Part shown: one piece after another, positions 16,839 through 49,588 of the stretch
Layout of the letters: each line of letters starts with the position of its first letter
How positions within the stretch are numbered: the stretch's first letter is position 1
Origin: Candidatus Accumulibacter contiguus
Lineage (GTDB): Bacteria > Pseudomonadota > Gammaproteobacteria > Burkholderiales > Rhodocyclaceae
Direction of reading: 5' to 3'
NCBI RefSeq assembly: GCF_012940005.1
Contig: NZ_SPMX01000055.1
Location: forward strand, 1-49,588
Length of the DNA: 49,588 bases
Position numbers and translations under genes: made by a program
The notes under the pieces: generated by a model
Told to the model about the DNA's origin: nothing
Databases searched by the model: none
The model's input: the letters and a program-made list of their open reading frames with translations, nothing else

Positions 16839-17996
16839 GTGTCCTTGTTACCCACTCTTCCGCCCGCGCTTCTCGCACTGGCCGACGGCACGCTTTTCCG
16901 CGGCCTGGCGATCGGCGCCGGCGGCAGTACCAGCGGCGAGGTCGTGTTCAATACGGCGATGACTGGCTACCAGGAAATACTGACCGATCCCTCGTACTGT
17001 CGCCAGATCGTCACCCTGACCTACCCGCACATCGGCAACGTCGGTTGCAATGCCGAGGACTTCGAGTCACCAGGCAATCATGCCGCGGGTCTGGTGATTC
17101 GTGATCTGCCGGTTCGCGCCGAGAGCTGGCGGCTGCAGGAGACACTGGCCGGGTATCTGCAGAAACATGGCATCGTGGCGATTGCCGGTATCGATACGCG
17201 CAAGCTGACACGCCTGCTGCGGGAAAAGGGCGCGCAGGCGGGCTGCATCATGGCGTTCGAGGTCGATGAGGAACGTGCGCTTGCCGAGGCACGTGCCTTC
17301 CCCGGTCTTGCCGGAATGGACCTCGCCAGGGTGGTCAGCGTTGCGGCGTCCTACGAGTGGTCCGGCGGGCCATGGCACTTGGGCGGCTATCGTGCTGCGC
17401 CGACACCATTGTGGCATGTCGTCGCCTACGATTTCGGCGTCAAACACAACATTCTGCGCTTGCTGGCGGCGCGTGCTTGCCGGGTGACGGTGGTGCCGGC
17501 AGAGACCACGGCGACTGAGGTCTTCAAGCTGCAACCGGACGGAGTATTCCTTTCGAACGGACCTGGCGACCCCGAGCCTTGCGATTACGCAATCACGGCG
17601 ATCCGTGAAATCCTCGCCAGGCGCCTACCGATTTTCGGGATTTGTCTGGGTCACCAGTTGCTGGCGCTGGCCTCGGGCGCCAGGACGATGAAAATGAAGT
17701 TCGGCCATCATGGCGCCAACCACCCGGTCAAGGATCTCCAGACCGGGCAGGTCCTGATCACCAGCCAGAACCATGGCTTCGCGGTGGATGCCGATACCCT
17801 GCCGGCGAACCTGCAGGCAACGCACGTGTCGCTGTTTGACGGATCACTGCAGGGCCTGACGCGTAACGACCTGCCTGCTTTTTCCTTCCAGGGCCACCCG
17901 GAAGCCAGTCCGGGGCCGCACGACATCGCCTATCTGTTCGACCGCTTTGTCCAGATGATGCAAGACGAAAAGGCGACTCATGCCCAAGCGCACTGA
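16839..17996 (+). CDS. carA: Carbamoyl-phosphate synthase small subunit
   Basis: Glutamine amidotransferase subunit (385 aa) that supplies ammonia to CarB for carbamoyl phosphate, shared by arginine and pyrimidine synthesis. It shows the N-terminal domain ([20 protein letters not shown]) and a class I amidotransferase domain with [13 protein letters not shown], nucleophile cysteine in [13 protein letters not shown], and the final His/Glu in [11 protein letters not shown]. The GTG at 16839 was chosen because CAGGAG lies six bases upstream and the N-terminus fits E. coli CarA length; the reading from 16737 would include the leader hairpin. It overlaps carB by 17 bases. Confidence 0.95.
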
Positions 17997-20900
17997 CCTC
18001 AAGAGCATTCTGATCATCGGTGCCGGTCCGATCGTCATCGGACAGGCCTGCGAGTTTGACTACTCCGGTGCGCAAGCCTGCAAGGCGCTGCGCGAGGAAG
18101 GCTACCGGGTGATTCTGGTGAACTCCAATCCGGCCACGATCATGACCGATCCGGAAATGGCGGAAGTCACCTATATCGAGCCGATTACCTGGAAAGTCGT
18201 CGAAAAAAATCATCGCCAAGGAGCGTCCAGACGCGCTGCTGCCGACCATGGGCGGGCAGACGGCGCTGAACTGTGCGCTCGATCTGGCCAGACATGGTGT
18301 TCTCGAACGCTTTGGCGTCGAGATGATCGGTGCCACCAGGGAAGCCATCGACAAGGCCGAGGACCGCGAGAAGTTCAAGGTGGCGATGACCCGCATCGGT
18401 CTCGGTTCAGCTCGTTCGGCGATGGCGCACTCGCTGGAGGAAGCGCTGCAGGTGCAGGCGATGATCGGCTATCCGGCAATCATCCGCCCATCGTTCACCA
18501 TGGGCGGTTCGGGTGGCGGCATTGCCTACAACCAGGAAGAGTTCGTCGAAATCTGCAAACGCGGCCTCGAAGCCAGTCCGACCAGCGAGTTGCTGATCGA
18601 GGAGTCGCTGATCGGCTGGAAAGAGTTCGAGATGGAGGTGGTGCGCGATCGCAAGGACAATTGCATCATCGTCTGTTCGATCGAGAACCTCGACCCGATG
18701 GGGGTGCATACCGGCGACTCGATTACCGTTGCTCCGGCACAGACGCTGACCGACAAGGAATACCAGATCATGCGCGACGCTTCAGTGGCGGTGTTGCGCG
18801 AGGTCGGCGTCGATACCGGCGGCTCGAACGTCCAGTTTGCGATCTGCCCACAGGACGGGCGGATGATCGTCATCGAGATGAACCCGCGTGTTTCGCGTTC
18901 TTCGGCGCTGGCGTCGAAGGCCACCGGCTTTCCGATCGCCAAGGTGGCGGCAAAACTGGCGGTAGGTTATACGCTCGATGAACTGGCCAACGACATCACC
19001 GGTGGCAAGACCCCGGCCTCGTTCGAGCCATCAATCGACTATGTGGTCACCAAGGTGCCCCGTTTTGCCTTCGAGAAATTCCCCGAGGCCGACTCGCGGC
19101 TGACCACGCAGATGAAATCGGTGGGCGAAGTCATGGCCATCGGGCGAACCTTCCAGGAATCCTTGCAAAAGGCCTTGCGCGGCCTTGAGATCGGCGTCGA
19201 CGGCTTCGACGAGCGCAGCGTCGATCGCGAGGAAATCGAGATGGCGCTCAGCGAAGCGCGCCCGGAACGTATCTGGTACGTGGCCGACGCCTTCCGGATC
19301 GGTCTGAGTCTGGGCGAGATTCATCGGCTGACGGCGATCGATCCATGGTTCCTGGCGCAGATCGAGGATCTCTACAAGAAGGCCGAACATATCCGCGGCA
19401 GGCCGCTCGCTTCGCTGTCACGCGACGAGTTGTGGTATCTGAAACGTGCCGGTTTTTCGGACAAACGCCTGGCGACCCTGATGCGGACGACGCAGACGGC
19501 GGTTCGCGAGCGCCGGCATGCGCAGCTGATTCGCCCGGTCTACAAACGTGTCGACACTTGCGCAGCCGAATTTTCGACCGATACCGCATACCTGTACTCG
19601 ACCTATGAGCAAGAGTGCGAGGCGAATCCCAGCGACCGGAATAAGATCATGGTCCTTGGTGGCGGCCCGAACCGCATCGGCCAGGGGATCGAGTTCGACT
19701 ACTGCTGCGTGCATGCTGCGCTCGCGCTGCGTGCCGAAGGTTATGAGACGATCATGGTCAACTGCAATCCGGAAACGGTATCCACGGACTATGACACCTC
19801 CGATCGTCTCTACTTCGAGCCGCTTACGCTCGAGGACGTGCTGGAAATCGTCGCCGTGGAAAAACCGATCGGCGTCATCGTCCAGTATGGCGGGCAGACC
19901 CCACTCAAGCTTGCACGTGACCTCGAAGCCAATGGCGTACCGATCATCGGCACCAGCCCGGACATGATCGACGCTGCCGAGGATCGCGAGCGATTCCAGA
20001 AGCTGCTCCAGGATCTGGGCCTCAGACAGCCGTCCAACCGTACCGCACGAACCGAACCCGAGGCACTGCGCCTGGCAGCCGAAATCGGTTATCCGCTGGT
20101 AGTTCGTCCGTCGTACGTGCTCGGCGGCCGGGCAATGGAAATCGTCCATGAAGAGCGCGACCTCGAACGCTACATGCGTGAGGCAGTCAAGGTTTCCAAC
20201 GATTCGCCGGTGTTGCTCGATCGTTTCCTGAACGATGCCTGCGAAGTGGACGTCGATGCGCTCTGCGATGGCCAGGAGGTGCTGATCGGCGGAGTGATGG
20301 AGCATATCGAACAGGCCGGCGTGCATTCCGGTGATTCGGCGTGTTCGCTGCCGCCGTATTCGCTGTCGACCGAATTGCAGGACGAACTGCGCCGGCAGAC
20401 GCGGCTGATGGCCATGGGGCTGAAGGTCTGCGGTCTGATGAACGTCCAGTTCGCGATCCAGAGGGGAGTCGTTTTTGTCCTCGAAGTCAACCCGCGCGCA
20501 TCGCGTACGGTTCCCTTCGTTTCCAAGGCCACCGGGCTACAGTTGGCAAAAATCGCTGCCCGTTGCATGGTTGGACAATCACTCGCCAGCCAGGGGGTCA
20601 CCCAGGAAGTGGTCCCGAATTATTTCTCGGTCAAGGAAGCCGTTTTTCCTTTCGCGAAGTTCCGTGGCGTCGATACCATTCTGGGTCCCGAAATGAAGTC
20701 GACGGGCGAGGTGATGGGAGTTGGTCTCAGCTTTTCCGAGGCCTTCGTCAAGAGTCAGTTGGCAGCAAGCGTTCGCCTCCCGAGTTCGGGGCAGGTGTTC
20801 ATCAGCGTCAAGGAATCGGATAAGCCGAAGGCGGTGAATATTGCCCGCGAACTGCAGGCGACAGGGTTTACACTGATTGCCACGCGCGGTACGGCGGCGG

Positions 20901-21193
20901 CAATCGCGGCAGCAGGAATTGCCGTGACGCCAGTGAACAAGGTGACCGAAGGTCGTCCACATGTGGTCGACATGATCAAGAACAACGAGATCGTCCTGAT
21001 CATCAATACCGTGGACGAAAAGCGCAAGGCCATCAGCGACTCTCGCTCGATCCGCACCTCTGGCCTCGCGGCAAGAGTGACGATCTACACAACGATCTGG
21101 GGCGCCGAAGCGGCAGCGGACGGGATCAGGAATCGTGGCGAGCTGGTCGTCTATCCGATACAGGATTTGCACGCACAACTGAAACTTAGTTAA
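17980..21193 (+). CDS. carB: Carbamoyl-phosphate synthase large subunit, with a +1 frameshift at 18203-18209
   Basis: CarB (about 1070 aa once corrected) makes carbamoyl phosphate from bicarbonate, ammonia and two ATP. The first frame runs [21 protein letters not shown] to ITWKVVEK and then breaks in a run of seven A; with six A it continues [20 protein letters not shown] and enters the long downstream frame, whose two ATP-grasp halves are intact ([11 protein letters not shown] in the first, [14 protein letters not shown] in the second) along with the C-terminal allosteric domain. As written, synthesis from ATG 17980 would end in an unrelated 333-aa frame. carB is essential for pyrimidine synthesis in most bacteria, so a homopolymer error is the simplest reading. 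greA follows. Confidence 0.93.
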
Positions 21194-38289: not shown

Positions 38290-39869
38290 ATGCACCTGCG
38301 CAAGCACGACCTTCTGCAAATGAACGACGAGTGGCTGAAGAAGCTGCCGGCGGAGCGATTGCTGGAGGTGTCGAAGCGTTTGCTGGACGACGTCAAAGAG
38401 TGACATGATCGGCTGAACCAAAACCCGGACAACAGCTCGCGCCCGCCCACGAGCCAGGCCCCTTGGGAGAGAGCCAGCGACGCGGAGGTGGGCCAGGATT
38501 CGCCAAGCGAGACCAACCCGGTAGAAGCGGATGAAGGGGAGACGGAAACCGGGGAGGTAAGGGAAGAGACGGCCCAATCGGAAGAGAAGTCCCCCTCAGC
38601 GCCGAAGGCGGCAAAGAAGAAGGCCGGCAAGCCGCTCGGCAGTCAGGGCTTTGGCCGTACCCAGAAACTGACGGTCACCGCCACTTGCGAGCACCGACCG
38701 GAGAACTGTGCGGCGTGTGGGCTAGCGCTGGCGGCGGACGCCAAGTCAGAGGCTTACACGGGCTGGGACGAAATCGACATTGCCCCGCCGGCAGAAGGCA
38801 GGATAGGGCTGCTGTTCAGTGTCACGCGTCATCTCCTGCTCGAAGTGGAGTGTACCTGTGGTCATGTCAGCCGTGCGCAGCCTTGGCGGGCGCCGCCGGA
38901 CAGCCAGTGGGAGAAGGTCGAGCTGGGCGAGTGGCGCTTGGTGGGCCCCCAGTTGGCCGGAGTCCTCGTCTTCCTCGGGCTGCGCATGCGCCTGTCGCGG
39001 GCGCGTATTCGCGAGGGGCTGATGGAATTATTCGGCCTGATGCTGAGCACCGGCGTGATCGACGAGACGATCCGGGAAGCGGGGCGCGCCAGTTTCCCGC
39101 TGGAGGATAGGTTGGTAGCGGACCTCGTGCCGGCGCCGCAACTGAATGGGATGAAACCTCATGGAAGGAATCCGGCCTGCTGCTGTGGCTGTGGGCTTTG
39201 GTCACGACCCACACGGTGCGGTTCCTCATTGGCCCGCGCACCGCGGAAATTCTGGAGAACGCCTTGCAAGACGGCTATCACGGCATGCTCATCAGCGATG
39301 GCTACGTGGTCTACCGCGCCTGGAAAAACCGCCTGCGCTGTTGGCCGCATCTGATGCGCAAATTGCGAGGCCTGGCCGAATCGACCGATAGACGGGTGGC
39401 CGGGGTCGGCAAGGAAATGGAAGGCCTCATGCAAACGCTGATGGACGCCATCTACGCGGCGAGGATCGATCCGCCGCCGGAAGGGCTGCCTGTGCGCTAC
39501 GCGGTCGACATCGCGCGGCTCCGGCACCTATGCGAGGCGCATTGGATGGATGCCCACCCGGCGCTACGCAGCGTCGTGCGCGAATTTCTCTACGACTGGG
39601 AGGTGATCCTGCGCCCGGTCGCCGAGCCCCCTCTGCCGCTTTCCAACAACGCTGCCGAACAGGCGCTGCGCCACTGGGTGATTGCACGCCACATCAGCCA
39701 CGGTACCCGCTCCGAAGCGGGGTCTCGCGCCTTCGCGCTCCTGGCCAGCGTCATCGAAACCTGCCGCCGTCGTGGGGCATCCTCCTGGCGCTACCTCGGC
39801 ACCGTCATCGCAGCCGCGCGCAAGGGCTTGCCGCTCCCGCCGCTCCCAGCCATCCCGGCAGCAGCATAA
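38290..39869 (+). pseudogene. tnpC: IS66-family transposase (TnpC), nonsense mutation plus frameshift
   Basis: Starting at ATG 38290 the frame reads HDLLQMNDEWLKKLPAERLL, then meets TGA at 38401 and continues HDRLNQNPDNSSRPPTSQAP, the classic TnpC N-terminus. A zinc-finger-like HRPENCAACG and CTCGH follow. The DDE core then shifts frame near 39147 (three G where four would keep the frame: DETSWKESGLLLWLWALV). The rest is intact: ILENALQDGYHGMLISDGYVV, PLSNNAAEQALRHWVIARHI and a Pro-rich end whose TAA is also the start of the 94-bp element. So the transposase is almost surely inactive unless the shift is a sequencing error. Confidence 0.85.
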
Positions 39870-40054: not shown

Positions 40055-40852
40055 TCATCGACCCGAGTTTTTCTTAAGCATCCGAGGTGGAGGTCTGTCT
40101 TGAATTCGGTATTGCCAATGCAAGTACGTGCCTTGCAGAAACTCCAAAGTAAAGGGAGTCCTGGTCGCGGGATCGAGCGCGAAAAGTTGTTGCTCGGCGA
40201 CGAGAACCGGCGTATACGATGGTTCGTTTTGGAGAGCGAGATCGTGCAATTCGAGGCGATTGGGGAAGCGCGCTGTGAGGATTGTGTCTCGCGAAGTCAA
40301 GGTATACCCATATGACTCATAGACAGTGATTAGCGACTCCTTCGCGAAGTCATGGTCGGCCAAGAAGGTCGGACTGAATCGTTTTGGGTCTAAGTAAACG
40401 CGGTGGAGGGCTCGAGGCTTCCCCCCCAGATAGCGTATCCGTGGGATTACTATGAAAGGCTCTGGCTCCATTAAGCCCAGAGCGGTATAAGCTCGCGTTT
40501 CCATTTGCGTTAAGGGATTATCCGCAAATGGCAAACGCATTACCATTTCTCTCGCGATGACCTCCGTTCTTACCTCTTCTCCGAGAAGATGGGCTGATCG
40601 TGTGAAGCTGAACTCTTCAGCCTCATGGTGGATGAGCGCGGACAACACCATGGCAGAGCCGTCCCCTTGAAGCTTGATCCAGCCGCTCTGCGCTGCGGCC
40701 TCTAGCCCTTCAGTGATGGCCTCCTTGCTGCATCCCCACATCTTGCCAAGTTCTGCCGTGCTCGGAAGGGAGGCACCTTCGCCCAGGCCTTTCTCGCTGA
40801 TCAAGTGCTGAATTCGTGCCTGTATTGAATGCTGATCGTTTGTCATAAACAT
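40055..40852 (-). CDS. GntR-family transcriptional regulator with UTRA-like ligand domain
   Basis: The N-terminal winged helix is of the GntR type: IQHLISEKGLGEGASLPSTA followed by ELGKMWGCSKEAITEGLEAA. The C-terminal ~165 residues look like a UTRA domain (FSFTRSAHLLGEEVRTEVIA, then FIVIPRIRYLGGKPRALHRV), which usually binds a small phosphosugar or similar ligand. ATG 40852 gives 265 aa (TTG 40900 would add 16 residues). It is the last gene of the minus-strand cluster, 267 bp downstream of the radical SAM gene, and a candidate repressor of the whole cluster; this role is inferred. Confidence 0.75.
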   Translation of the reverse strand: MFMTNDQHSIQARIQHLISEKGLGEGASLPSTAELGKMWGCSKEAITEGLEAAAQSGWIKLQGDGSAMVLSALIHHEAEEFSFTRSAHLLGEEVRTEVIAREMVMRLPFADNPLTQMETRAYTALGLMEPEPFIVIPRIRYLGGKPRALHRVYLDPKRFSPTFLADHDFAKESLITVYESYGYTLTSRDTILTARFPNRLELHDLALQNEPSYTPVLVAEQQLFALDPATRTPFTLEFLQGTYLHWQYRIQDRPPPRMLKKNSGR

Positions 40853-41119
40853 CCCAGTCCCTGGTGTTTGGATAGTTTTGTGGCCGGATTTCTTGGCCAA
40901 CTCCTTGATGGAATACCTCTTCCCCGCGGCTTGCAGCCTTCACCCTCGAGCAGCGCTATGGCTGCTGTATTTGGAGCTACTGTCATGCTTTGTGACCGGT
41001 TGCCTAGCACCAGCGAGAGTTGTAGTGAGGACAACTCTGGATGGCTTCGGCAGATCGGTGAGCAGCGATAGAACTCGTACCCCGCCTATCACGTTTGTTC
41101 CCGGGGTCTTGTTCTTGAA

Positions 41120-43632
41120 TTACTCGACCGGCAGGTGCTGCCGATCGAGCTCTCTACTATATGCCTCGATATGACGTAACAGAATGGCCTCATCCTCACT
41201 CCTCTTTCGAAAAACACCTCTAGCGATCATTTGCGACACTTGATTCACAAGGTCACGTACTTCACGTTCCGCCTGGGTGCAGATTTGCCCAAGCTGATCA
41301 TCCATACCACCGATCACGGCTGCCTCGCCTAGACTCTCCATCATGTCGAGATAGATCTCAGCATTAGCCTGAACGGTTTGTGTCGCGAAGTCGACCGCTT
41401 CATCTCCCCCCGTGCCAATGGCTCTTCGAGATGGTCTTTAAGGCGTAGAAGACCGGAGCACTAGACCGAGATATCCTGTGAACGGCCTCGGCTAACTGGG
41501 CGACTGGCGGGTCAGCAAACCGGTAGCGGGATGACATAAAGTTCGGATCTTGTTCCCCGGTCAGGAGGCCCTGGCTGTCTAGCGTCTGCTTAATAGCAGT
41601 CCCCTCGTTGACCACTAGTGGCCGAAACGGCCATGTGTTGTAGCGCACGAGACCGTTCGCTCTGAAAAAAGGCGATGTTCTCAAGAAGTTCCTCAATTGT
41701 TAAGTTTGGATCGAACATTATAAAGCCGACATCAATGTCTAAATCCAACTCTTGAAGCACCTTTAAAGCACACAACGTATCATCGATAGTCTCTTTTCGG
41801 TTGTATCTGAGTTTCTGCGCCCAACTGCCGCTTTCGAGCCCAATATAGACACGGGTCAACCCGGCATTCCGAAGAAGCTGGAGCGCATATCGAATTCTCC
41901 TGTTTTCTTCGGCGATCTTCTGCGTTCTTGGCTCCCTGGAAATGATCAGAGGCGTCGTAAAAATTCGGAACGAGACCTGAGTGTCCCATTTCTGGGCTAT
42001 CGACGCCATCCCAAGGGCAAAATCATGAATCCGGTTCAGAGCGGTCACGCTTCGGCCGCCGAAAAACTCGTCATCGCAGAACTCGATTTCCCGAATTCCT
42101 CGAGAAACGAACATCTCGACGTTCTGAAATACTCGCTCAAGGGAGAAATGCCGCCACTTTGTGGAGGGCGACGGAGTGGTCACGTCGCCAATGGCGTCAA
42201 TCTTGGTTGAGGCGTTGAAGCTGCGCCAGCGGGTGCAATAGGTACAGCTAAACACACAGCCGCGGCTTGTCTGGATCATGTTTGTGATGCCCGGCTTGAC
42301 CGTGTCGGCTGACGGAGGATGCGGAAGCGCGGTTAGGTCCAAGTTGACCAGTGGTGTGCGATGGATTGCGCGCGTCTCATTGCACCGGTAAACGATGTTG
42401 TTGATGTACTGGAGCTGGGTCCGCCCGCGGATGAACTCGACGAGGCCGCGCATGACCAATTCCCCCTCATGTAGGCAGACGATCGCCGTAGGTATGCGCA
42501 AGTCATTTAGAAAGCGCTCAGGGAAATAGGTTGGCAGCTGATTGCCAAGAACAAGAATCGATCCCTGTGCTCTGGGATCTTGGCTATACAGGTCAAGGTA
42601 ACGGTCTACGAGCTGTAGCGTCCCGAGCTCGACCGACAATCCGACGATAGCAGGGAAAGCAGCGCGCTCACGATTGAATGCTCTATCGACTAAGTCGAGA
42701 CGATCTAGCCGACGCACGGTGATGGCGACTTCGTCGCCATACTCCCCAAGCAAATCACCGGTCAGCGTTTCGACGCTGAGGTTATTCCACAAGGCGTAGT
42801 GCCATGGAGAGCCGAACGTCACGAACTCGATGCTTGTCGGCGTGATGGGAAACTCCTTGGCTAGGATATCAGCTAGTGCGTCCCGCACGAGCCCATCGTC
42901 CGGCCCAATTGTGCGTCGAAAGCCGTTCGCGCGACGCTCTGCGATGAAGTAACTGGCATTGGCGCGAACTTGACGGCCCATGCCAGGCAAGAGGTCGAGC
43001 TTGTCCAGAAAGTCCTCATCGGACGCAAGCTCGGCTGCTTGGAGAGGCGTAACTCCGTGGCCTGGGCTCTGCTGGTTTACCACTATCAGGCGATCGAGCA
43101 CCCAGCGACGCGTGCCGGCGGGCACGGGGTCGCGACGATTTTGACTCGTCAGCGAGTGGTAACATGCGGCAAAGAGCAGTAACTGACGCAGATCATCGGA
43201 ATCTACACCTAACTCGTTAAAGAGCTGCTCTCTCACGTAGATCGCATCCCCATCGCAAGCGACCAGGAAGTCAACGCCTTTACAGCGAAAGGAGTAGCGC
43301 CGAAAAGGTTGGCTGTGGCTTGCGAACGCGTTGCTCCCGTGCGAACCAGTTGAATCAGCCGCGCATGGTGGCTGAATGGACCGACCGGAGACAGCCTGAG
43401 CAGAGGGGTTACCGACAATGACGAGACGTGATGGTGAGTTGCTGTGATTGATCTGGGGTGCGAACTCCCGCAGTGGACGCACTGACAAGGGACACACTTT
43501 GATCAAATCCTCTATGGATGACCGAAGGTGCTTTAGCCGGTAGTGCGTGGGCGGGGGGAAACCAGGTGCCACGAGCCCTGTCATCGACCCGGTGGGGCTT
43601 TCTTCGCTAGTGGACGACCGTGTCGTGTTCAT
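41120..43632 (-). CDS. Cobalamin-binding-type radical SAM protein, two homopolymer frameshifts
   Basis: As written the frame breaks in A6 (41665-41670) and C6 (41406-41411, plus strand). Deleting one base in each joins three frames into one 836-codon gene (2511 bases, divisible by three); the third part, 41120-41344, has no start codon of its own in that frame. Read this way the tail runs LTIEELLENIAFFRANGLVR and later SKSHWHGGDEAVDFATQTVQ. The radical SAM motif is C459-x3-C463-x2-C466 in TSRGCVFSCTYCTRW. Before it, residues ~330-420 look like a B12-binding domain (IVGLSVELGTLQLVDRYLDL, LVLGNQLPTYFPE, CLHEGELVMRGLVE), but without the DxHxxG cobalamin-ligand motif. The first ~300 residues are unrecognised. 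The start ATG 43632 overlaps the LysR stop (ATGA), with GGAGG upstream. Likely a methyltransferase- or rearrangement-type enzyme; substrate unknown. Confidence 0.8.
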
Positions 43633-44471
43633 GCTTTCACAACCTCCTTCCACAAGTCCGGTTCTAGTACGCCACCTAGTCTGCGCTCGTCCACCTTTCG
43701 ATGAAGCGCGACCAACTCATCGACAACGTCTCGCGCGGGACGATTGACCGACAGGTATTCCCAGTCGAATTTGCTGAGATAGATGTCGGGCAGCACTAAG
43801 CGGTAGGGCAGCCCGCGCCGAACCATCTCGAGCGCGGACAGGTAGGAGGTTGCGAGCGGTCCGTGAGGCGTCATAACCTCTGGTTCGACCAGCGCAACGC
43901 GGTGGTTAAGTTTTTCCCCATAACCGCCGGATTCCCAGGTCAGCGTCGAGAGCACTCTTGCGCTGGTTCCCCGTGGGGCGGCGATGACGGCCCTCCACGG
44001 GGCGAGAGAAACCATAGCAATATCTTCGTCGATCGTGGTTGCCGAGCCTCGGTGCACGATGGCAAGGTCAATGTCGCCGTCGCGCAGGGCGTCTACCGCT
44101 GCCGTCGACCGTAGAAGCAATGCGCGAGGTGTGTAATCCAGTCTGGCAAAGACTTGGCGCACGAGCATTGCCGACAGACTGCCCGCAGAAACGCGAGGAA
44201 ACCGTATGGCAGCGGCAATCTCGTCGTCATTGCGCCGAATTGCTTCAGCCAACCGCTTGACCTCTGCGGGGAAGACCAACCGGTGTCCTTCATTCCAGCT
44301 TAGGCCGGTGTCGCCGACAACCTCGTCTATCCGATTTAATAGGCGGTCGATGGAGGCTCGGTCCACCCCAAGAAACATGGCCGCTTCGCTCTTGGAGGCA
44401 GGTTTCCTCGCTACCAGTCGGACGAGGGAATCCATGTCTCGCCGCGTGAGGCTCATCCTTTCGCGAGGCAT
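43629..44471 (-). CDS. LysR-like transcriptional regulator
   Basis: A 280-aa protein with an N-terminal helix-turn-helix (DSLVRLVARKPASKSEAAMF followed by LGVDRASIDRLLNRID) and a C-terminal periplasmic-binding-protein-like effector fold (VDALRDGDIDLAIVHRG, and AVIAAPRGTSARVLSTL). The HTH is less canonical than in typical LysR proteins. It lies inside the operon, 11 bases after the glycosidase-like gene, and its stop overlaps the radical SAM start, so the two are translationally coupled. A regulator in mid-operon is unusual; feedback on the same transcript is possible. Confidence 0.7.
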   Translation of the reverse strand: MPRERMSLTRRDMDSLVRLVARKPASKSEAAMFLGVDRASIDRLLNRIDEVVGDTGLSWNEGHRLVFPAEVKRLAEAIRRNDDEIAAAIRFPRVSAGSLSAMLVRQVFARLDYTPRALLLRSTAAVDALRDGDIDLAIVHRGSATTIDEDIAMVSLAPWRAVIAAPRGTSARVLSTLTWESGGYGEKLNHRVALVEPEVMTPHGPLATSYLSALEMVRRGLPYRLVLPDIYLSKFDWEYLSVNRPARDVVDELVALHRKVDERRLGGVLEPDLWKEVVKA

Positions 44472-44482
44472 CGCTTCCCTAC

Positions 44483-45442
44483 CTACAAGTGACCGCCAAG
44501 CACGGGATGACTCACCGGCTGCGGAAAGCTGCCCAAGTCGAACATAATGAATACCGTGCCGGAAGGACGATGATTAGGGCCGGCGACGACGACAACCGGC
44601 GTGGCGCCGGTTTTCGGGCAGTAATACCAGCCGACACTGCCGCCGTTATCCAGAACAATCGCCTGCTCTATGTCCAAAGCCACCAGCCTGCAGGCGATGT
44701 CGGTCAGCGAGCCGGTTATTGCCGCGCACAGCACCGACCCGTCGGCACGTCCGCCCAGCACGCCATGCAGGATATTACGGCTTGGCTTCGCGCGATGGCG
44801 TTCCGCGATCGCATCGATCCGCATGCAAATGGATTCGTCATCAAGGCCATCCTGCTTACCGACTTCCCAGGCATCAGCGAGTTCATGCCAAGCCTGCGCC
44901 GACGGTCCGATCAAGCCTTTCGGGTGCACCTCGTAGGCGTGGGCGGGGTCGGAGCAATTGGCAACAACAAAGGATCGCGACACAGGCCTGCCATCGATAA
45001 CCAGAGGCAGTCCGGTCAGGATATCGGGTTCCTCCGGAAGGCTGCCCAATGGATGGAACGAGACACCACTCCCGCCAAGCGCCGCAACCGGCCAGCAGGG
45101 ATCAAGGGGCGGATCGCCGGCCCGACCGAACCAGGATCCTTTGAGGCGCAGCCGGAAACCGAACTCGTTCAACACGTTGCGTGCACCGACAAGCATCGAA
45201 TGCCCCCGTCCTTCGCTGCGGGCCAGAACATCGGCTGCGCACCGGACATCGGAGCCGTAATCGCGCCAAGGGAGTTCAACGCGTGGTTCTTCGTTCCGGG
45301 CCAGGGCAATACGTTCGGCCCGAAAGGATGATCGTACGTACCCGTAGCTTGGACTCGACACAGCCGCCGCTCCAGGGAAGAACGCGCGGGCCGGTGTCCC
45401 CGCCGGGAGATCGAGAAGTGCAAATTGGGCGAAACAAGCCAC
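44483..45442 (-). CDS. Phosphodiester-glycosidase-like (NAGPA-type) protein
   Basis: The C-terminal third resembles the NAGPA/phosphodiester glycosidase domain: GRADGSVLCAAITGSLTDIA and then IEQAIVLDNGGSVGWYY (residues ~231-275), where the family has a DGGGS loop. The glycines are kept but the first is replaced (LDNGGS at 264-269). It starts with GTG 45442, 18 bases after the ROK gene stop. No signal peptide is seen, so it is likely cytoplasmic, unlike most secreted relatives. The first ~120 residues are unrecognised. A role cleaving or binding a sugar-phosphodiester is inference. Confidence 0.6.
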   Translation of the reverse strand: MACFAQFALLDLPAGTPARAFFPGAAAVSSPSYGYVRSSFRAERIALARNEEPRVELPWRDYGSDVRCAADVLARSEGRGHSMLVGARNVLNEFGFRLRLKGSWFGRAGDPPLDPCWPVAALGGSGVSFHPLGSLPEEPDILTGLPLVIDGRPVSRSFVVANCSDPAHAYEVHPKGLIGPSAQAWHELADAWEVGKQDGLDDESICMRIDAIAERHRAKPSRNILHGVLGGRADGSVLCAAITGSLTDIACRLVALDIEQAIVLDNGGSVGWYYCPKTGATPVVVVAGPNHRPSGTVFIMFDLGSFPQPVSHPVLGGHL

Positions 45443-45460
45443 GGATCGGTCTTCGCAGGT

Positions 45461-47362
45461 TCAGACAAGGAACACGGGGTCGATCTCACGGATCGAGTCG
45501 TCGCCGCCGCTCGACGACGAAGGAGAGAAAAAAGTCTCCCATGCCGCGCGTGCGGCTCCCTCCGCCGCATTAGTTTCACCTGCTTCGCATCGCAGAAATT
45601 TCAAGCCCTTGATAGCATGAGACCCATCCGGGCTTTCGGTCTCGAAGCCATAGAATGTCTTCAAGTGCTCCTTCGCTTCCTGCCCCAATTTTTCACCGAT
45701 AACGGTCACAGGCCCACCCGACAAATAGACAGCATCTGCCTTGAGGATGTCGGCACACATAGCAATAAGATCCGCTGTTAGCCACGACGCTCTTTCCAGC
45801 AGATTGCTCATGCTGCTCAAATACCCGCTAAGTTGTTGCTCGCGCACTTGCTTAAGCAATTCCCTGCATTTACAGTCATCCTTCATCCATGTCAAATGCG
45901 CAGGCAAGTTATCGAAAACCTCCTTCTCCCACTCGTTGGTGTTAAACTGCTTCTCATTGGACTTGGAGAGTTCGTACAGCCAGCTCACTTCCCTGTTGCT
46001 CATGGGGGAATTGAAAAGATCCTTTGCGATCCGAGGATTTGTCTTTTCTGAGAATAGCTGATTGGCAACCCCAGCAGGAAAGTTGCCTCCCTTCTGGTAG
46101 TCAAGAAACGGCTCAACCAGATTGATGATCATTTTCCCGATTTCGTTCAGAAATGGGGTTATCTTGTCGTGTTCGACGAGCCCAAGTGCCGTTCCGGTTC
46201 CGGCCACCACGACCATCAGGCGTTTCCCTGTCCACGACTCGCCTAATAGTCTGGCCCGAGCTGCGTTGACGTGGCCGTCACCGTCGTTAATCAGTCGAAC
46301 ATAATCCCCAAATTGACTTACAAAACCCTCGCGGATTTTCAAACCGTGAATATCATCGGGCGAATTGTCCTTGATGGTCGAGCTAAGCTTCTCAAACTTT
46401 GCGAGAATCCCACTCGTCCCCGCGACGTACTCTCGTCCTGGCTCACCCCGCACCGGGCCCGGCCACGTTACTCCCACGCATAGGCCCTTCAGATCTATAT
46501 CCTTCGCTTCTGGATTCGCTTTTAGCTCCGCTTTTATATGACCGCAAACATACGTACAAAAATCCTCACCGTTCCTATACTTTGTTCCTCGTTCTGTGAG
46601 CAGTTTACCGGGAATAAATGGTTCGAAGGCGGAGGGCTTGCCCTCAACCTTGACGTGTTTGTAGAGGCACCATTTGATGCTCGTGCCTCCAATGTCGATA
46701 CCGAGGAGATAGGGAGATTTATCACCTGCGTTATGTTGAATTCCGGTACGGACAGGTTGGTCAGCTAAATTGAGATAACGCTGGCAGCCAACCTGGAGCA
46801 AATAGGCCCGCAAAGTTTCATGATTGTCTTTCTCCTGAACCCACTTGATAGCTTTGATCCATTGGTCCCGGCGAGCGGAATTAATTCTGTTGCCAGACTC
46901 TGCTTGCAAAAAGTCGACTTCAAGATCCCCTGGTCCGAGCAACATGCGAAGATTAACCCATGCTGCAGCAGCACAGCGAGCGACTACAAGTTTCGGATTC
47001 CACCAGCCTCCATTGTTATAGAGCTCCGCAACCGTGCTCGGCTCTGCGCCTTTATCTGGCCCAGGCAGGCGGTCGACTGTGCTTTGGAGATCGCGGGTTT
47101 TTGGAGCGATCAATGGTAGGGGCAGTGCAAAAGCCCTAACAGTGAACTTCTCGTTCGCCGGTGCCGACCACCTCAACGTCATCAGGCAAAATTGTTTGCT
47201 ATGTTCTCGATGAAGTTCCCGAAGCAGCCGGTCCACATACGGAACCGGCAGGAAATGATGGCCACCAAATTCCCAAGATCGGGCGCTCCATTTTATATAC
47301 TTTAAGAGCCCTTTTCCGATAAGGGACCAAGGATCAAGATCGCTAGTCGTGTCATTGCTCAT
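45461..47362 (-). CDS. ROK-type sugar-kinase-fold protein with an unknown N-terminal domain
   Basis: The 633-aa protein has ~210 residues of unrecognised sequence, then a ROK fold: phosphate loop LLGIDIGGTSIKWCLYK (223-230), NDGDGHVNAARARLLGES with catalytic Asp 360, VVVAGTGTALGLV (GTG ~388-390) and adenosine-side AVYLSGGPVTVIG near 560. The ROK substrate motif ExGH is altered to NEIGKM (H replaced by K) and the zinc motif CxCGxxGC is missing. The enzyme could phosphorylate a sugar or act as a sensor. ATG 47362 with GAGGAGCG upstream. Length is twice a typical ROK kinase. Composition is less GC-rich than core genes. Confidence 0.72.
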   Translation of the reverse strand: MSNDTTSDLDPWSLIGKGLLKYIKWSARSWEFGGHHFLPVPYVDRLLRELHREHSKQFCLMTLRWSAPANEKFTVRAFALPLPLIAPKTRDLQSTVDRLPGPDKGAEPSTVAELYNNGGWWNPKLVVARCAAAAWVNLRMLLGPGDLEVDFLQAESGNRINSARRDQWIKAIKWVQEKDNHETLRAYLLQVGCQRYLNLADQPVRTGIQHNAGDKSPYLLGIDIGGTSIKWCLYKHVKVEGKPSAFEPFIPGKLLTERGTKYRNGEDFCTYVCGHIKAELKANPEAKDIDLKGLCVGVTWPGPVRGEPGREYVAGTSGILAKFEKLSSTIKDNSPDDIHGLKIREGFVSQFGDYVRLINDGDGHVNAARARLLGESWTGKRLMVVVAGTGTALGLVEHDKITPFLNEIGKMIINLVEPFLDYQKGGNFPAGVANQLFSEKTNPRIAKDLFNSPMSNREVSWLYELSKSNEKQFNTNEWEKEVFDNLPAHLTWMKDDCKCRELLKQVREQQLSGYLSSMSNLLERASWLTADLIAMCADILKADAVYLSGGPVTVIGEKLGQEAKEHLKTFYGFETESPDGSHAIKGLKFLRCEAGETNAAEGAARAAWETFFSPSSSSGGDDSIREIDPVFLV

Positions 47363-47401
47363 TGTGGCGCTCCTCTCGTCTGATTGGGCGATGGCGAACC
47401 A

Positions 47402-48478
47402 TTACATGCCAGTGCTGGGTTCGGGGATTCTGACGTCAAGCCAAAGATTGAAGGGCTTTAGCAGATGGACATGATGGAACGAATAATTATTCGAAGTGGT
47501 AGTAGCACACCACCGTCGTGAGACGCTATCGACATCCACTGTAAACTCCTTGTCACAAATTGCCATATGCAAGTTTTCCACGTCAGATTTGCGCCAGTGA
47601 CGGCCTAAGCTGATTGAACAGAAATGCTGCTTTGGCTGAGAAAGAGTTAGGACCTTTTCCACTATTAGCTGCCGTATTTTACAAAGAGCCTCCTCAAGAT
47701 AATTGCCGTACTCGAATGAAAGGAGGGCGGAATCCTCAGGCTTGGCCTGGGGTTCCTCCTCTGCTCCCACGAATTTCTCGACTTCCTGCAGGTCGTCGTC
47801 CAGGTCCGAGTTTGTATTCCCCGAGGAAACCCGACGACGGCCGTCGAGGGCAAGCGCCGCATATGCGCAGGAGCGCCAATAAGATGTTGGAAGCGTCTCG
47901 CCCAGCGCCGCTGAAATAACCGTCTTGAGTTTGCCCAGGCAGCGCGCACCGTCATCACAAAACGTCTTGGGAGGTCCATAGGTCGACACCTCACACGAAA
48001 GTCGAGAATGGAGCATTCCGCGCAGCGTATTTTGGAAGGCGATCATCGCGCAGACCCGCCTTGCTGACTTATCTCCGAGTTTTCCGCGCAGTGAATTCCA
48101 GGCAGCGTCGGCGGAGTAGAAATCATGGTGCCATCGCTGGTGCCAGCTATCGTGGCTGTGCAAGACCGCGAGGTACGTCAAGGCGGCCCAAGATGTCCGC
48201 CCCAGATCGGTGTCGGGTTCGAGTTGGTACATCTCCTCGCGACTTTGATCTGATGTGCCGGCCAAGAGAGCACCCAGGCGCTGCGACGAGCCCTCCAAGC
48301 GCGCGCGGACCGCTTCCAGCAGAAAGTCCTGCACCCACTGCTTCCCCTTACAGGCCAAGATCCAATCATCGGTGTTGACAGCCTGCTCGTCGGATAGCGC
48401 CTCAAAGAACCGCTCCGTGTCGTTACGGACAGTCTCAGTCTTCGGAACGATCAAACCACAGAGATCTCTCGGTTTCAT
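47402..48478 (-). CDS. Unrecognised 358-aa protein, first gene of the cluster
   Basis: I do not recognise this protein. It is a soluble protein with Trp/His-rich stretches (SHDSWHQRWHHDFYSADAAW), some cysteines (SYWRSCAYAALALDG; FCDDGARCLGK) and a low-complexity acidic stretch (SDLDDDLQEVEKFVGAEEEP). No membrane segment or signal peptide is seen. ATG 48478 has GGAGGGG upstream. It is transcribed first from the promoter with dyads and is followed by the ROK gene after 39 bp. As the first and unique gene it is the natural marker for finding other copies of the cluster. Confidence 0.65.
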   Translation of the reverse strand: MKPRDLCGLIVPKTETVRNDTERFFEALSDEQAVNTDDWILACKGKQWVQDFLLEAVRARLEGSSQRLGALLAGTSDQSREEMYQLEPDTDLGRTSWAALTYLAVLHSHDSWHQRWHHDFYSADAAWNSLRGKLGDKSARRVCAMIAFQNTLRGMLHSRLSCEVSTYGPPKTFCDDGARCLGKLKTVISAALGETLPTSYWRSCAYAALALDGRRRVSSGNTNSDLDDDLQEVEKFVGAEEEPQAKPEDSALLSFEYGNYLEEALCKIRQLIVEKVLTLSQPKQHFCSISLGRHWRKSDVENLHMAICDKEFTVDVDSVSRRWCATTTSNNYSFHHVHLLKPFNLWLDVRIPEPSTGM

Positions 48479-48509: not shown

Positions 48510-48537
48510 AGTGTACTATCTATGCAGCAAATGTCAA
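48510..48537 (-). promoter_or_regulatory. Promoter of the accessory cluster
   Basis: On the minus strand TTGACA (48537-48532) is a perfect -35; with a 16-base spacer the -10 is TACACT (48515-48510), 4 of 6 consensus matches. It lies 32 bases before the ATG at 48478, leaving a short leader with GGAGGGG. The dyad at 48512-48526 covers the -10 and spacer, the classic repressor position. Confidence 0.6.
48512..48526 (-). promoter_or_regulatory. Proposed operator O1 (over the -10 region)
   Basis: TGTACTATCTATGCA on the plus strand. It shares 14 of 15 bases with O2 and overlaps the cluster's -10 element, so a bound protein would block RNA polymerase. Candidate binders are the cluster's GntR or LysR-like protein; neither is shown. 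Confidence 0.55.
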
Positions 48538-48575: not shown

Positions 48576-48590
48576 TGTACTATCTATACA
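48576..48590 (-). promoter_or_regulatory. Proposed operator O2 (upstream copy)
   Basis: TGTACTATCTATACA, a dyad of the form TGTA-N7-TACA. It begins 64 bp from O1, close to six helical turns, a spacing that permits DNA looping between bound regulators. The homology extends past the dyad (CTATCTAxxCACC and ATG), making two 23-bp imperfect direct repeats. Confidence 0.55.
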
Positions 48591-48646
48591 CCAGATGGCC
48601 AGTCTGATAAAGGCAGGGTCGGCATCATCTTGGGAGGATCAGGGAG

Positions 48647-48919
48647 CTAGGCGAGCAACGGCATGCGGTGATACTCGATCTGTCGGTAACGGACCGGGCC
48701 GTCCTCGTCGGAATGGTGCAGGACCAGCGGCCGCAACAGGAATTCCCAGTGGGACGAGATGCACGGCGCGCGGAAGCGACTGACGAAGGAGAGGTACTTG
48801 CTGCGCTTCTCGTAATCGGAGACAGCCAGAACCTTGCCGTCCGATGTCAGCCATTCGGCACGCCGAAGGCAGTGGCCGCCGCTGCCGTCGTCGTCCCAGT
48901 AGGGCGGATAAGCGGCCAT
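48647..48919 (-). CDS. Hypothetical protein, ~90 aa, start inside the second palindromic element
   Basis: I do not recognise it. The product reads MAAYPPYWDDDGSGGHCLRR, then AEWLTSDGKVLAVSDYEKRS and RQIEYHRMPLLA. Its ATG (48919) lies within the 94-bp element copy 2, so the insertion may have created or replaced the start of an older gene. It could be a gene cut by the element. No Shine-Dalgarno is evident. Confidence 0.4.
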   Translation of the reverse strand: MAAYPPYWDDDGSGGHCLRRAEWLTSDGKVLAVSDYEKRSKYLSFVSRFRAPCISSHWEFLLRPLVLHHSDEDGPVRYRQIEYHRMPLLA

Positions 48920-49002
48920 CAAAAAGTTCTCCGTGCTTCCGTGCCCGGTTTGCCGAGGCCCGTAGCCTTCTGAAGATCGGAGAACTTATCCGAGGGCGCT
49001 TA
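48909..49002. repeat. 94-bp palindromic (MITE-like) element, copy 2
   Basis: Begins TAAGCGGCC and ends GGGCGCTTA. Its right arm (48977-49002, TCGGAGAACTTATCC and on) matches the copy 1 right arm 23 of 26 bases; its left arm matches the left arm of copy 1 in outline (TAAGCGG, AAGT, TCCG). The middles differ. The element is the same length as copy 1 and flanks the other side of the cluster. On the minus strand its TAA also serves as the stop of the ORF at 49000-49115. Confidence 0.75.
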
Positions 49003-49115
49003 GGCGCGCCCGAAGCGGTAGAGCGTGTCCTGGACCTGCCGCAGGTCGAGATCGTCGTCGGCGATCTCGACGACGACGATCTCGACATCGATGTCGTAGA
49101 AGAAATACAGATAGG
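49000..49115 (-). pseudogene. ORF tail ending at the palindromic element
   Basis: The minus strand ends YLYFFYDIDVEIVVVEIADD followed by DLDLRQVQDTLYRFGRA and TAA at 49000-49002. Upstream of ~49115 the frame (to 49299) no longer looks coding, suggesting that the second insertion element replaced the gene's start. I cannot name it; a toxin- or nuclease-like small protein is conceivable. Confidence 0.3.
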
Positions 49116-49322
49116 TGCACGATGTCGAAGGTCGTCGGCTCGGTGCTGTTACGTCCTCCCCTGGCTGAGGTCTAAGGGCTCGAAATATCCCGCGCACGGT
49201 CGGGAAGAAGAAAGAAGCACTGCCTGAAAGAGGTCGGGACGAAGGGGGAAGAGGAAGGGCTGGGACACCTCTGCTATCGTGGGAAGTTATCGAGACCACC
49301 CGGATAGAAAGGAGCCCAGCCC

Positions 49323-49588
49323 ATGCGACGAATTGTAATCGGCATCACCAGTCTTGAGCAGCATATCGAGGCAGTCAAGGCCAACCCCGAGCACTACCGG
49401 CCGCGGTGCTGCCCCCACTGCGGCATCAAGCTCCTTTGGCGGCACGGGCACTATGAGCGCAAGGCCGGTCGGCAACTGGAGCAGCGGTCGCTCAATCCGG
49501 TGCCGATCTGCCGCTACCTTTGCAGCGGATGCCAGCGCACGTGTTCGCGCCTACCGGAGTGCATCGCACCGCGGCGCTGGTATGACTG
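49323..49588 (+). CDS. Zinc-ribbon transposase N-terminus (DUF6431-like), runs off the window
   Basis: The frame from ATG 49323 to the window end has two zinc-ribbon pairs, CCPHCGIKLLWRHG and YLCSGCQRTCSRLPECIAP, followed by RRWYD, a pattern of IS transposases carrying this domain. GGAG lies close upstream. The element's left end is probably in 49115-49310, where I see no gene, but I could not place its inverted repeat. The C-terminal part is outside the window. Confidence 0.7.
   Translation, partial: MRRIVIGITSLEQHIEAVKANPEHYRPRCCPHCGIKLLWRHGHYERKAGRQLEQRSLNPVPICRYLCSGCQRTCSRLPECIAPRRWYD

What the first reader, a model, noticed from the sequence alone, without database searches (positions are those of the whole stretch)
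40055..48478. Candidate undescribed gene cluster: B12-type radical SAM + ROK fusion + phosphodiester-glycosidase-like + two regulators
Six minus-strand genes are packed tightly (gaps of 39, 18, 11, -4 bases; the GntR gene is 267 bp further on) in DNA less GC-rich than the core. The combination of an unknown 358-aa protein, a ROK-fold protein with a novel 210-aa N-terminal domain, a cytoplasmic phosphodiester-glycosidase-like protein, a mid-operon LysR-like regulator, a cobalamin-type radical SAM protein and a GntR/UTRA regulator fits no system I know. Inference: a sugar- or phosphosugar-linked pathway, possibly making or modifying a glycoside or nucleoside-like compound.
Basis: partly seen in the sequence, partly recalled or inferred. 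Interest (0 to 1): 0.9.

Follow-up and report, generated by a model that had tools for sequence, protein, structure and literature searches.

The report
Rare radical-SAM sugar or nucleoside operon
Five neighbouring genes, including a vitamin-B12 radical enzyme that resembles the one making the antibiotic oxetanocin, form a rare shared operon in two Accumulibacter genomes and probably build or process an unusual sugar- or nucleoside-like molecule.

Summary
The cluster is real, but the conserved unit is five genes, not six. U358, a ROK-like fusion, a phosphodiester-glycosidase-like protein, an HTH/LysR-like regulator and a B12 radical SAM (rSAM) protein recur in the same order and strand in a second Accumulibacter genome, G020 (44 to 82% identity), with three identical junction lengths. 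GntR is absent there. Two operator-like repeats, 64 or 65 bp apart, lie at nearly the same distance upstream in both genomes. A contig from another class keeps a ROK fusion, GntR/UTRA and a glycosidase-like gene together. The operon is rare: ROK fusion in 2 of 101 genomes, U358 in 2 of 200, own genome included. The rSAM protein resembles OxsB (E 6e-26), the oxetanocin ring-contraction enzyme. The window's rSAM gene is broken into three frames at homopolymer runs, as carB is, so assembly errors are likely. Best reading: a mobile, co-regulated pathway acting on a phosphorylated sugar or nucleoside. Substrate and product are unknown; both structure predictions failed.

The parts
47402..48478 (-). 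U358: first gene of the operon, family unknown; its G020 counterpart is 44% identical and keeps an HSHDxWHQxWHHDF stretch
   Evidence: No match in Pfam, NCBIfam or PADLOC up to E 1, PHROGs up to E 0.1, or solved structures up to E 5; G020 counterpart; AlphaFold model unusable, pLDDT 44.5
45461..47362 (-). ROK-like (ASKHA fold) protein with about 210 extra N-terminal residues
   Evidence: hhalign of the three fusions against 9 ROK proteins: E 4.1e-6, probability 87, over 155 columns of the N-terminal lobe; DIGGT, IND and GTG motifs kept, ROK zinc motif absent; 61% identical in G020, related in G248
44483..45442 (-). NAGPA (phosphodiester glycosidase)-like protein; only the C-terminal half of the family matched, below the curated cut-off
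   Evidence: Pfam PF09992 E 0.0029 here and 2.6e-4 in G020, profile positions about 94-166 of 169; DNGGS and NHRxxGT invariant in 3 of 3; AlphaFold model unusable, pLDDT 36.3
43629..44471 (-). Putative transcription regulator: HTH-like N-terminus plus weak LysR-type effector-binding domain
   Evidence: PF03466 E 7.1e-4, 19.4 bits against cut-off 28; PF00126 (LysR HTH) not among matches; 80% identical in G020
41120..43653 (-). B12-binding radical SAM gene, OxsB-like, broken into three frames in this assembly (first frame 41590-43653)
   Evidence: Three-frame match to the intact 858-aa G020 protein; Radical_SAM E 1.1e-13 and weak B12-binding E 3e-4; OxsB E 5.9e-26 for the G020 protein
48510..48537 (-). 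Sigma-70-like promoter of the operon (10 of 12 consensus matches, 16-bp spacer) overlapping the nearer operator-like repeat
   Evidence: consensus match only; 3 sites found in the region against a mean of 4.0 in shuffles; overlap read
48512..48523 (.). Operator-like repeat, near copy (TGTACTATCTAT)
   Evidence: a repeat of other sequence at nearly the same position in G020
48576..48587 (.). Operator-like repeat, far copy, 64 bp from the near one
   Evidence: a repeat of other sequence at nearly the same position in G020
40055..40900 (-). GntR/UTRA regulator gene, adjacent but not part of the conserved unit
   Evidence: UTRA E 1.6e-11; GntR E 1.3e-4, below its cut-off; no match in the G020 locus; a GntR/UTRA gene lies between the ROK and NAGPA-like genes in G248, 22% identical over 162 residues

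Best explanation
The five genes from 48478 down to about 41120 are one co-transcribed, horizontally moving accessory operon that acts in the cytoplasm on a phosphorylated sugar or nucleoside. A repressor or activator (most likely the operon's own HTH/LysR-like protein) binds two sites 64 to 65 bp apart, one inside the promoter of the first gene. The ROK-like kinase phosphorylates the sugar part. The B12 radical SAM enzyme then rearranges or methylates the sugar carbon skeleton, as OxsB rearranges the furanose of deoxyadenosine phosphates. The phosphodiester-glycosidase-like protein makes or breaks a sugar-phosphate bond, either releasing the product or freeing the substrate. The first protein (358 aa) is of unknown role.

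Shown: gene order, strand, junctions and repeat layout shared by two genomes, family-level similarities, rarity in the genomes searched, different genomic sites. Inferred: co-transcription, horizontal movement, cytoplasmic location, which protein binds the repeats, substrate class, order of steps, product.
For: Same five genes, order and strand in G020, with identical ROK-NAGPA, NAGPA-LysR and LysR-rSAM junctions (18, 11, -25 bp). Identity runs from 44% (U358) to 82% (NAGPA-like), so these are not recent copies. Paired repeats at nearly the same place upstream in both genomes (offsets 41/105 and 35/100 in the 150 bp before the start; 0 of 400 shuffles reach the observed repeat length in either). 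The G020 rSAM protein matches OxsB at 93.8 bits; the next solved chain is CysS at 14.1 bits, and no curated B12-rSAM family exceeds 37.0 bits for the window copy or 34.3 for G020. [quoted passage not shown] the G020 protein also has about 285 residues before its B12 region. Divergent ROK fold. ROK-like plus NAGPA-like pair kept on a G248 contig. None of the five proteins matched a transporter family.
Against: OxsB similarity covers only the B12 and radical domains (residues 290-663 of 858), and B12-rSAM enzymes act on very different substrates. The short G248 contig shows no rSAM gene, so the rSAM step may be an add-on; G248 is a 74%-complete genome, so the contig's owner is not certain. NAGPA similarity is below the curated cut-off and limited to half the domain; the PF09992 search did not report the window's copy at E 0.001, and hhalign with one protein above the cut-off gave probability 1.5, E 0.034 (unrelated control 0.2, E 0.33). 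Both structure models failed. No activity is shown, and the window's rSAM gene is broken as assembled. No OxsA-type HD domain was matched. The repeats were noticed before they were tested, the words differ between the genomes, and in 8 of 100 shuffles of the whole window the 12-base word matched at least twice with up to 2 mismatches (observed: two exact matches).
Confidence: 0.42

Rival explanations
1. Catabolic or salvage unit: the conserved core is only ROK-like kinase plus glycosidase-like hydrolase plus a regulator. The hydrolase frees a sugar from a glycosyl phosphodiester, the kinase phosphorylates it, and the regulator senses the sugar phosphate. The rSAM and U358 genes are lineage-specific additions.
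For: G248 (another class) has ROK fusion, GntR/UTRA and NAGPA-like genes head to tail, with no rSAM gene on its 4.2-kb contig. GntR/UTRA regulators often sense sugars (recalled).
Against: The contig ends soon after, so an rSAM gene cannot be excluded there. No transporter family matched. In Accumulibacter the rSAM gene overlaps the regulator gene and its first 664 residues are 78% identical, close to its neighbours (the two later pieces 82 and 65%).
Confidence: 0.3
2. Defence or conflict system carried on a mobile island.
For: Rare, at different genomic sites in the two genomes, with an IS66 element on one side; very weak PADLOC matches.
Against: The only PADLOC hits among six proteins are PDC-M51A in the radical SAM region (26 bits) and PDC-S09 (13 bits). 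No relatives of the NAGPA-like, ROK or U358 proteins in viral contigs, none of rSAM in phages. No nuclease, helicase or toxin family matched, though U358 is unknown.
Confidence: 0.07
3. Decaying remnant: the window copy is a non-functional accessory cluster, with the rSAM gene a true pseudogene.
For: Two frame changes in the rSAM gene; the neighbouring IS66 transposase also appears split.
Against: Both changes sit at runs of six identical bases, and the housekeeping gene carB on the same contig changes frame at a run of seven A, which points to assembly errors. The four other operon genes are open over their full length, and the G020 copy of rSAM is intact.
Confidence: 0.2

Closest known systems
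Oxetanocin A cluster (OxsA/OxsB) and albucidin cluster (AlsA/AlsB in PMC13331322; AlbA/AlbB in PMC7074753)
   Same: A B12-binding radical SAM enzyme with an extra N-terminal region; OxsB is by far the best solved match. OxsB and AlsB act on deoxyadenosine phosphates according to PMC13331322 (passages); PMC7074753 (passages) had proposed unphosphorylated deoxyadenosine for albucidin.
   Different: No OxsA-type HD domain and no second rSAM protein matched here; instead a ROK-like fusion, a NAGPA-like protein, a regulator and U358.
ROK family kinases (Pfam PF00480)
   Same: Colinear N-terminal lobe with DIGGT, IND and GTG motifs.
   Different: No Pfam ROK hit for the two Accumulibacter proteins and only E 0.093 for G248; weak allose-kinase hit in NCBIfam (E 0.0078); no CxCGxxGC zinc motif; about 210 additional N-terminal residues and about twice the usual length.
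NAGPA / phosphodiester glycosidase (Pfam PF09992)
   Same: C-terminal half of the domain with a DNGGS motif.
   Different: Below the curated cut-off; the N-terminal 220 residues match nothing; presence of a signal peptide was not tested.
Sphingobium yanoikuyae plasmid locus NZ_CP139981.1 (GntR, SurE, radical SAM, NUDIX)
   Same: Best rSAM relative among 11 matching plasmid records (28.8%, E 1e-32), next to a GntR gene and nucleotide-type hydrolases.
   Different: 575 aa, no ROK or NAGPA genes annotated nearby; the protein matches many B12-rSAM families (22 families listed), so the link is loose.

Membership tests
OxsB/AlsB-type B12 radical SAM enzymes | CxxxCxxC-type cluster motif and radical SAM domain | tested here: met
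   CVFSCTYC in both copies; PF04055 E 1.1e-13 and 1.6e-11
OxsB/AlsB-type B12 radical SAM enzymes | Closer to OxsB than to other B12-rSAM enzymes | tested here: met
   93.8 bits to OxsB, 14.1 to CysS, other solved chains lower; NCBIfam B12-rSAM models at most 37.0 bits and 34.3 bits. No tree with AlsB was made.
OxsB/AlsB-type B12 radical SAM enzymes | B12-binding domain | tested here: inconclusive
   PF02310 E 3e-4 and 7.9e-5, below the cut-off of 32.1 bits; DxHxxG motif (recalled) absent in 2 of 2
[quoted passage not shown]
   An N-terminal region of about 285 residues exists, but the phmmer match starts at residue 290
OxsB/AlsB-type B12 radical SAM enzymes | Acts on a deoxyadenosine phosphate | not testable with these tools
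   Needs an enzyme assay
ROK family | ASKHA N-terminal lobe with phosphate motifs | tested here: met
   hhalign E 4.1e-6, probability 87, against 9 ROK proteins; unrelated control A5 probability 0.85
ROK family | CxCGxxGC zinc motif (recalled) | tested here: not met
   Absent in 3 of 3 fusion proteins; present in 13 of 13 ORFs that two other motifs picked out of 20 ROK loci
NAGPA (PF09992) | Score above the curated cut-off of 25 bits | tested here: not met
   18.3 bits (window), 21.7 bits (G020), none for G248
NAGPA (PF09992) | Gly-rich D-x-GGS motif near the C-terminus (recalled as catalytic region) | tested here: met
   DNGGS invariant in 3 of 3
LysR-type regulators | PF00126 DNA-binding domain plus PF03466 effector domain | tested here: not met
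   PF03466 only, below cut-off; PF00126 not among matches at E up to 1 for either copy
Known anti-phage defence systems | Confident PADLOC match of a core gene | tested here: not met
   No match above 26 bits, 6 proteins scanned

The most novel reading that the evidence does not exclude
A new type of specialised-metabolite pathway in Accumulibacter, a bacterium of phosphorus-removing wastewater plants (recalled). A ROK-like kinase, an OxsB-like B12 radical SAM enzyme and a cytoplasmic phosphodiester-glycosidase-like enzyme, with two protein parts that match no family in the libraries searched (U358 and the ROK N-terminal region), make a rearranged or C-methylated sugar- or nucleoside-phosphate product under a shared two-operator switch.
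Probability: 0.28. Interest if true: 0.72.

Novelty: new variant of a known kind. Interest (0 to 1): 0.5.

Why it matters
According to the review seen here in passages, only two natural oxetane-containing nucleosides are known, made with the OxsB and AlsB enzymes (PMC13331322). An OxsB-like enzyme in a quite different, recurring gene setting, in an environmental proteobacterium, would widen the chemistry and give a small operon that can be expressed whole. U358 and the ROK N-terminal region are candidate new protein families.

Tried and rejected
Chance adjacency: rejected, because the five genes recur in order in G020. GntR as operon member: not supported by G020. The repeat word occurs only twice in the window at up to 2 mismatches, neither copy near the GntR gene.

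Relatives in plasmids: ROK window protein, no match; G248 NAGPA-like protein, no match; rSAM, 11 of 72,556 records, all below 60% identity. Viral contigs: no relatives of the NAGPA-like, ROK or U358 proteins. Phages: no rSAM match. One genome-contig scan with the NAGPA-like pair found 1 locus among 44 pattern matches, which is G020 itself.

G398 NAGPA hit (E 8.3e-4, a 96-aa open frame): by eye no ROK or rSAM gene among the ORFs listed around it; treated as chance.

Structure prediction of U358 (pLDDT 44.5) and NAGPA-like (36.3), each from two sequences: unusable, so no fold search was run. hhalign of the NAGPA-like profile to one NAGPA protein above the Pfam cut-off: weak (control).

A first ROK comparison used alignment A11, in which two of five rows were not ROK proteins because I had picked wrong ORFs (seen). 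It was replaced by A12 with nine of the 13 ORFs listed from 20 loci.

Neighbourhoods of the plasmid rSAM relatives: 4 of 11 looked at; one record had no annotation; in the other three no ROK or NAGPA gene was annotated.

Literature: no paper on this gene combination stood out in the listings of eight PMC searches (three of them returned 0 papers; listings only), nor in the OxsB search. Two papers were read in passages. The library lacks most subscription journals.

Full report
What is there. The window is a whole contig (C91) of a genome in the same genus as a record titled Accumulibacter sp.. Between an IS66 element (38.5-39.9 kb) and the contig end lie six minus-strand genes as reported. The rSAM gene is split into three frames: the G020 protein aligns in pieces 1-664, 652-748 and 747-833, with changes at runs of six A and six C; the last frame ends at 41120. 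The window has only 8 runs of six or more A/T and 5 of six or more G/C. The housekeeping gene carB (named from its sequence, recalled) likewise changes frame at a run of seven A. Assembly indels are therefore the likelier cause, though a real pseudogene is not excluded. An intact 858-aa copy exists in G020.

Recurrence. Counts include the own genome. Of 101 genomes (own plus relatives), 2 have the ROK fusion, the window's own and G020; of 200, 2 have U358. In wider samples the NAGPA-like protein was found in 3 of 398 (own, G248 and a doubtful G398) and 1 of 185 (own); the ROK profile in 2 of 398 (own, G248); and the rSAM protein at E up to 1e-20 in 1 of 299 (own). G020 is not among the matches of these wider samples, so it was evidently not drawn. 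Around G248, 1 of 200 (NAGPA-like) and 1 of 48 (ROK) were positive, both times G248 itself. The Pfam NAGPA family matched 2 of 61 relatives: G073, above the cut-off, and the G020 operon gene, below it; the window's own copy was not reported. G020 is the public record NZ_JAPUVR010000076.1, the only locus found in one genome-contig scan; that scan used two short patterns and reaches near relatives only.

The G020 operon. It holds U358, ROK fusion, NAGPA-like, HTH/LysR-like and rSAM genes in that order on one strand. Identities from the alignments are 44, 61, 82, 80 and 76%. Three of the four junctions are identical in length to the window's: 18, 11 and -25 bp with the same start choice; the first differs (39 against 2 bp, depending on the ROK start). 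The operon lies beside a ferric-reductase-like and a cytochrome-b5-like gene (my reading of the ORFs). The ferric-reductase-like gene has a match in 14 of 23 genomes searched. In the five of these examined, including the window's own genome on another contig (C113), tblastn finds the two flank genes together, but not the four G020 ORFs from beyond the operon that I tested. The following ORFs look alike in the window's genome and G013 and different in the other three (by eye). The ROK search had already shown no operon in those four relatives. The operon is therefore accessory, and it sits at different sites in the two genomes that have it.

Control region. In both genomes a repeated word lies upstream of the first gene: TGTACTATCTAT twice, 64 bp apart, in the window, and GATGTATACAT twice, 65 bp apart, in G020. 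Counted in the 150 bp before the start codon, the copies begin at 41 and 105, and at 35 and 100. None of 400 dinucleotide shuffles reached the observed exact-repeat length in either case; the test was made after the repeats were seen. Across the whole window the word found two exact matches, while 8 of 100 shuffles had at least two matches with up to 2 mismatches. The near copy overlaps a TTGACA-16-TACACT promoter-like site in the window. In G020 I read TTGACT-16-TACATT at the same place, not scored by a tool. The promoter scan by itself is not significant (3 found, mean 4.0 in shuffles); the shared layout is the evidence. The two words differ in sequence, so the same binding protein is not proven.

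The distant relative. A 4.2-kb contig of G248 (same phylum, different class; 74% complete) carries a 648-aa ROK fusion, a GntR/UTRA gene and a 319-aa NAGPA-like gene head to tail. BLASTP of the ROK proteins gives 29% over 219 aligned columns, E 2e-13. The NAGPA-like proteins are 27% identical in the full alignment, with DNGGS and NHRxxGT kept. The core thus appears to be kinase-like plus glycosidase-like plus a regulator. The contig is too short to show whether rSAM or U358 is nearby.

The proteins. The rSAM protein has radical SAM and weak B12-binding domains. Among 177,635 distinct solved sequences only OxsB matches well (E 5.9e-26; CysS next at E 0.07). No curated B12-rSAM family exceeds 37.0 bits for the window's copy or 34.3 for the G020 copy. 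By contrast, the Sphingobium relative matches OxsB and several other families strongly, so OxsB similarity alone is not proof of function. OxsB and AlsB act on deoxyadenosine phosphates according to PMC13331322 (passages); PMC7074753 (passages) had proposed deoxyadenosine itself for albucidin. The ROK-like protein is a divergent ASKHA member without the ROK zinc motif. NAGPA similarity is partial and below the cut-off. U358 matches nothing.

Judgement. A shared, rare, accessory five-gene operon is well supported. A pathway on a phosphorylated sugar or nucleoside is the most likely function (about 0.4). A salvage or catabolic unit built on the ROK and NAGPA pair is the main rival. The product is unknown, and no listing from the literature searches made here showed this combination.

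Noticed in passing
window 17980-21193: carB (carbamoyl-phosphate synthase large subunit, named from its sequence) changes frame at a run of seven A near 18203, suggesting homopolymer indels in this assembly.
   Followed up: partly
window 38488-39869: The IS66 transposase gene next to the cluster appears split into two frames; only the second piece has a Pfam match.
   Followed up: partly
L013 7323-11203 (Sphingobium yanoikuyae plasmid NZ_CP139981.1): GntR, SurE nucleotidase, radical SAM and NUDIX genes sit together on a plasmid typed as conjugative: another possible nucleotide-linked radical SAM cluster.
   Followed up: partly
window 48639-49588: Upstream of the operon, two short open frames (48647-48922 and 49000-49299) have no Pfam match up to E 0.1, and the contig then ends.
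   Followed up: partly
L036-L040 (five Accumulibacter genomes): After a ferric-reductase and cytochrome-b5-like gene pair the following ORFs look alike in two of five genomes and different in the other three; it may be a site that takes up accessory genes.
   Followed up: no
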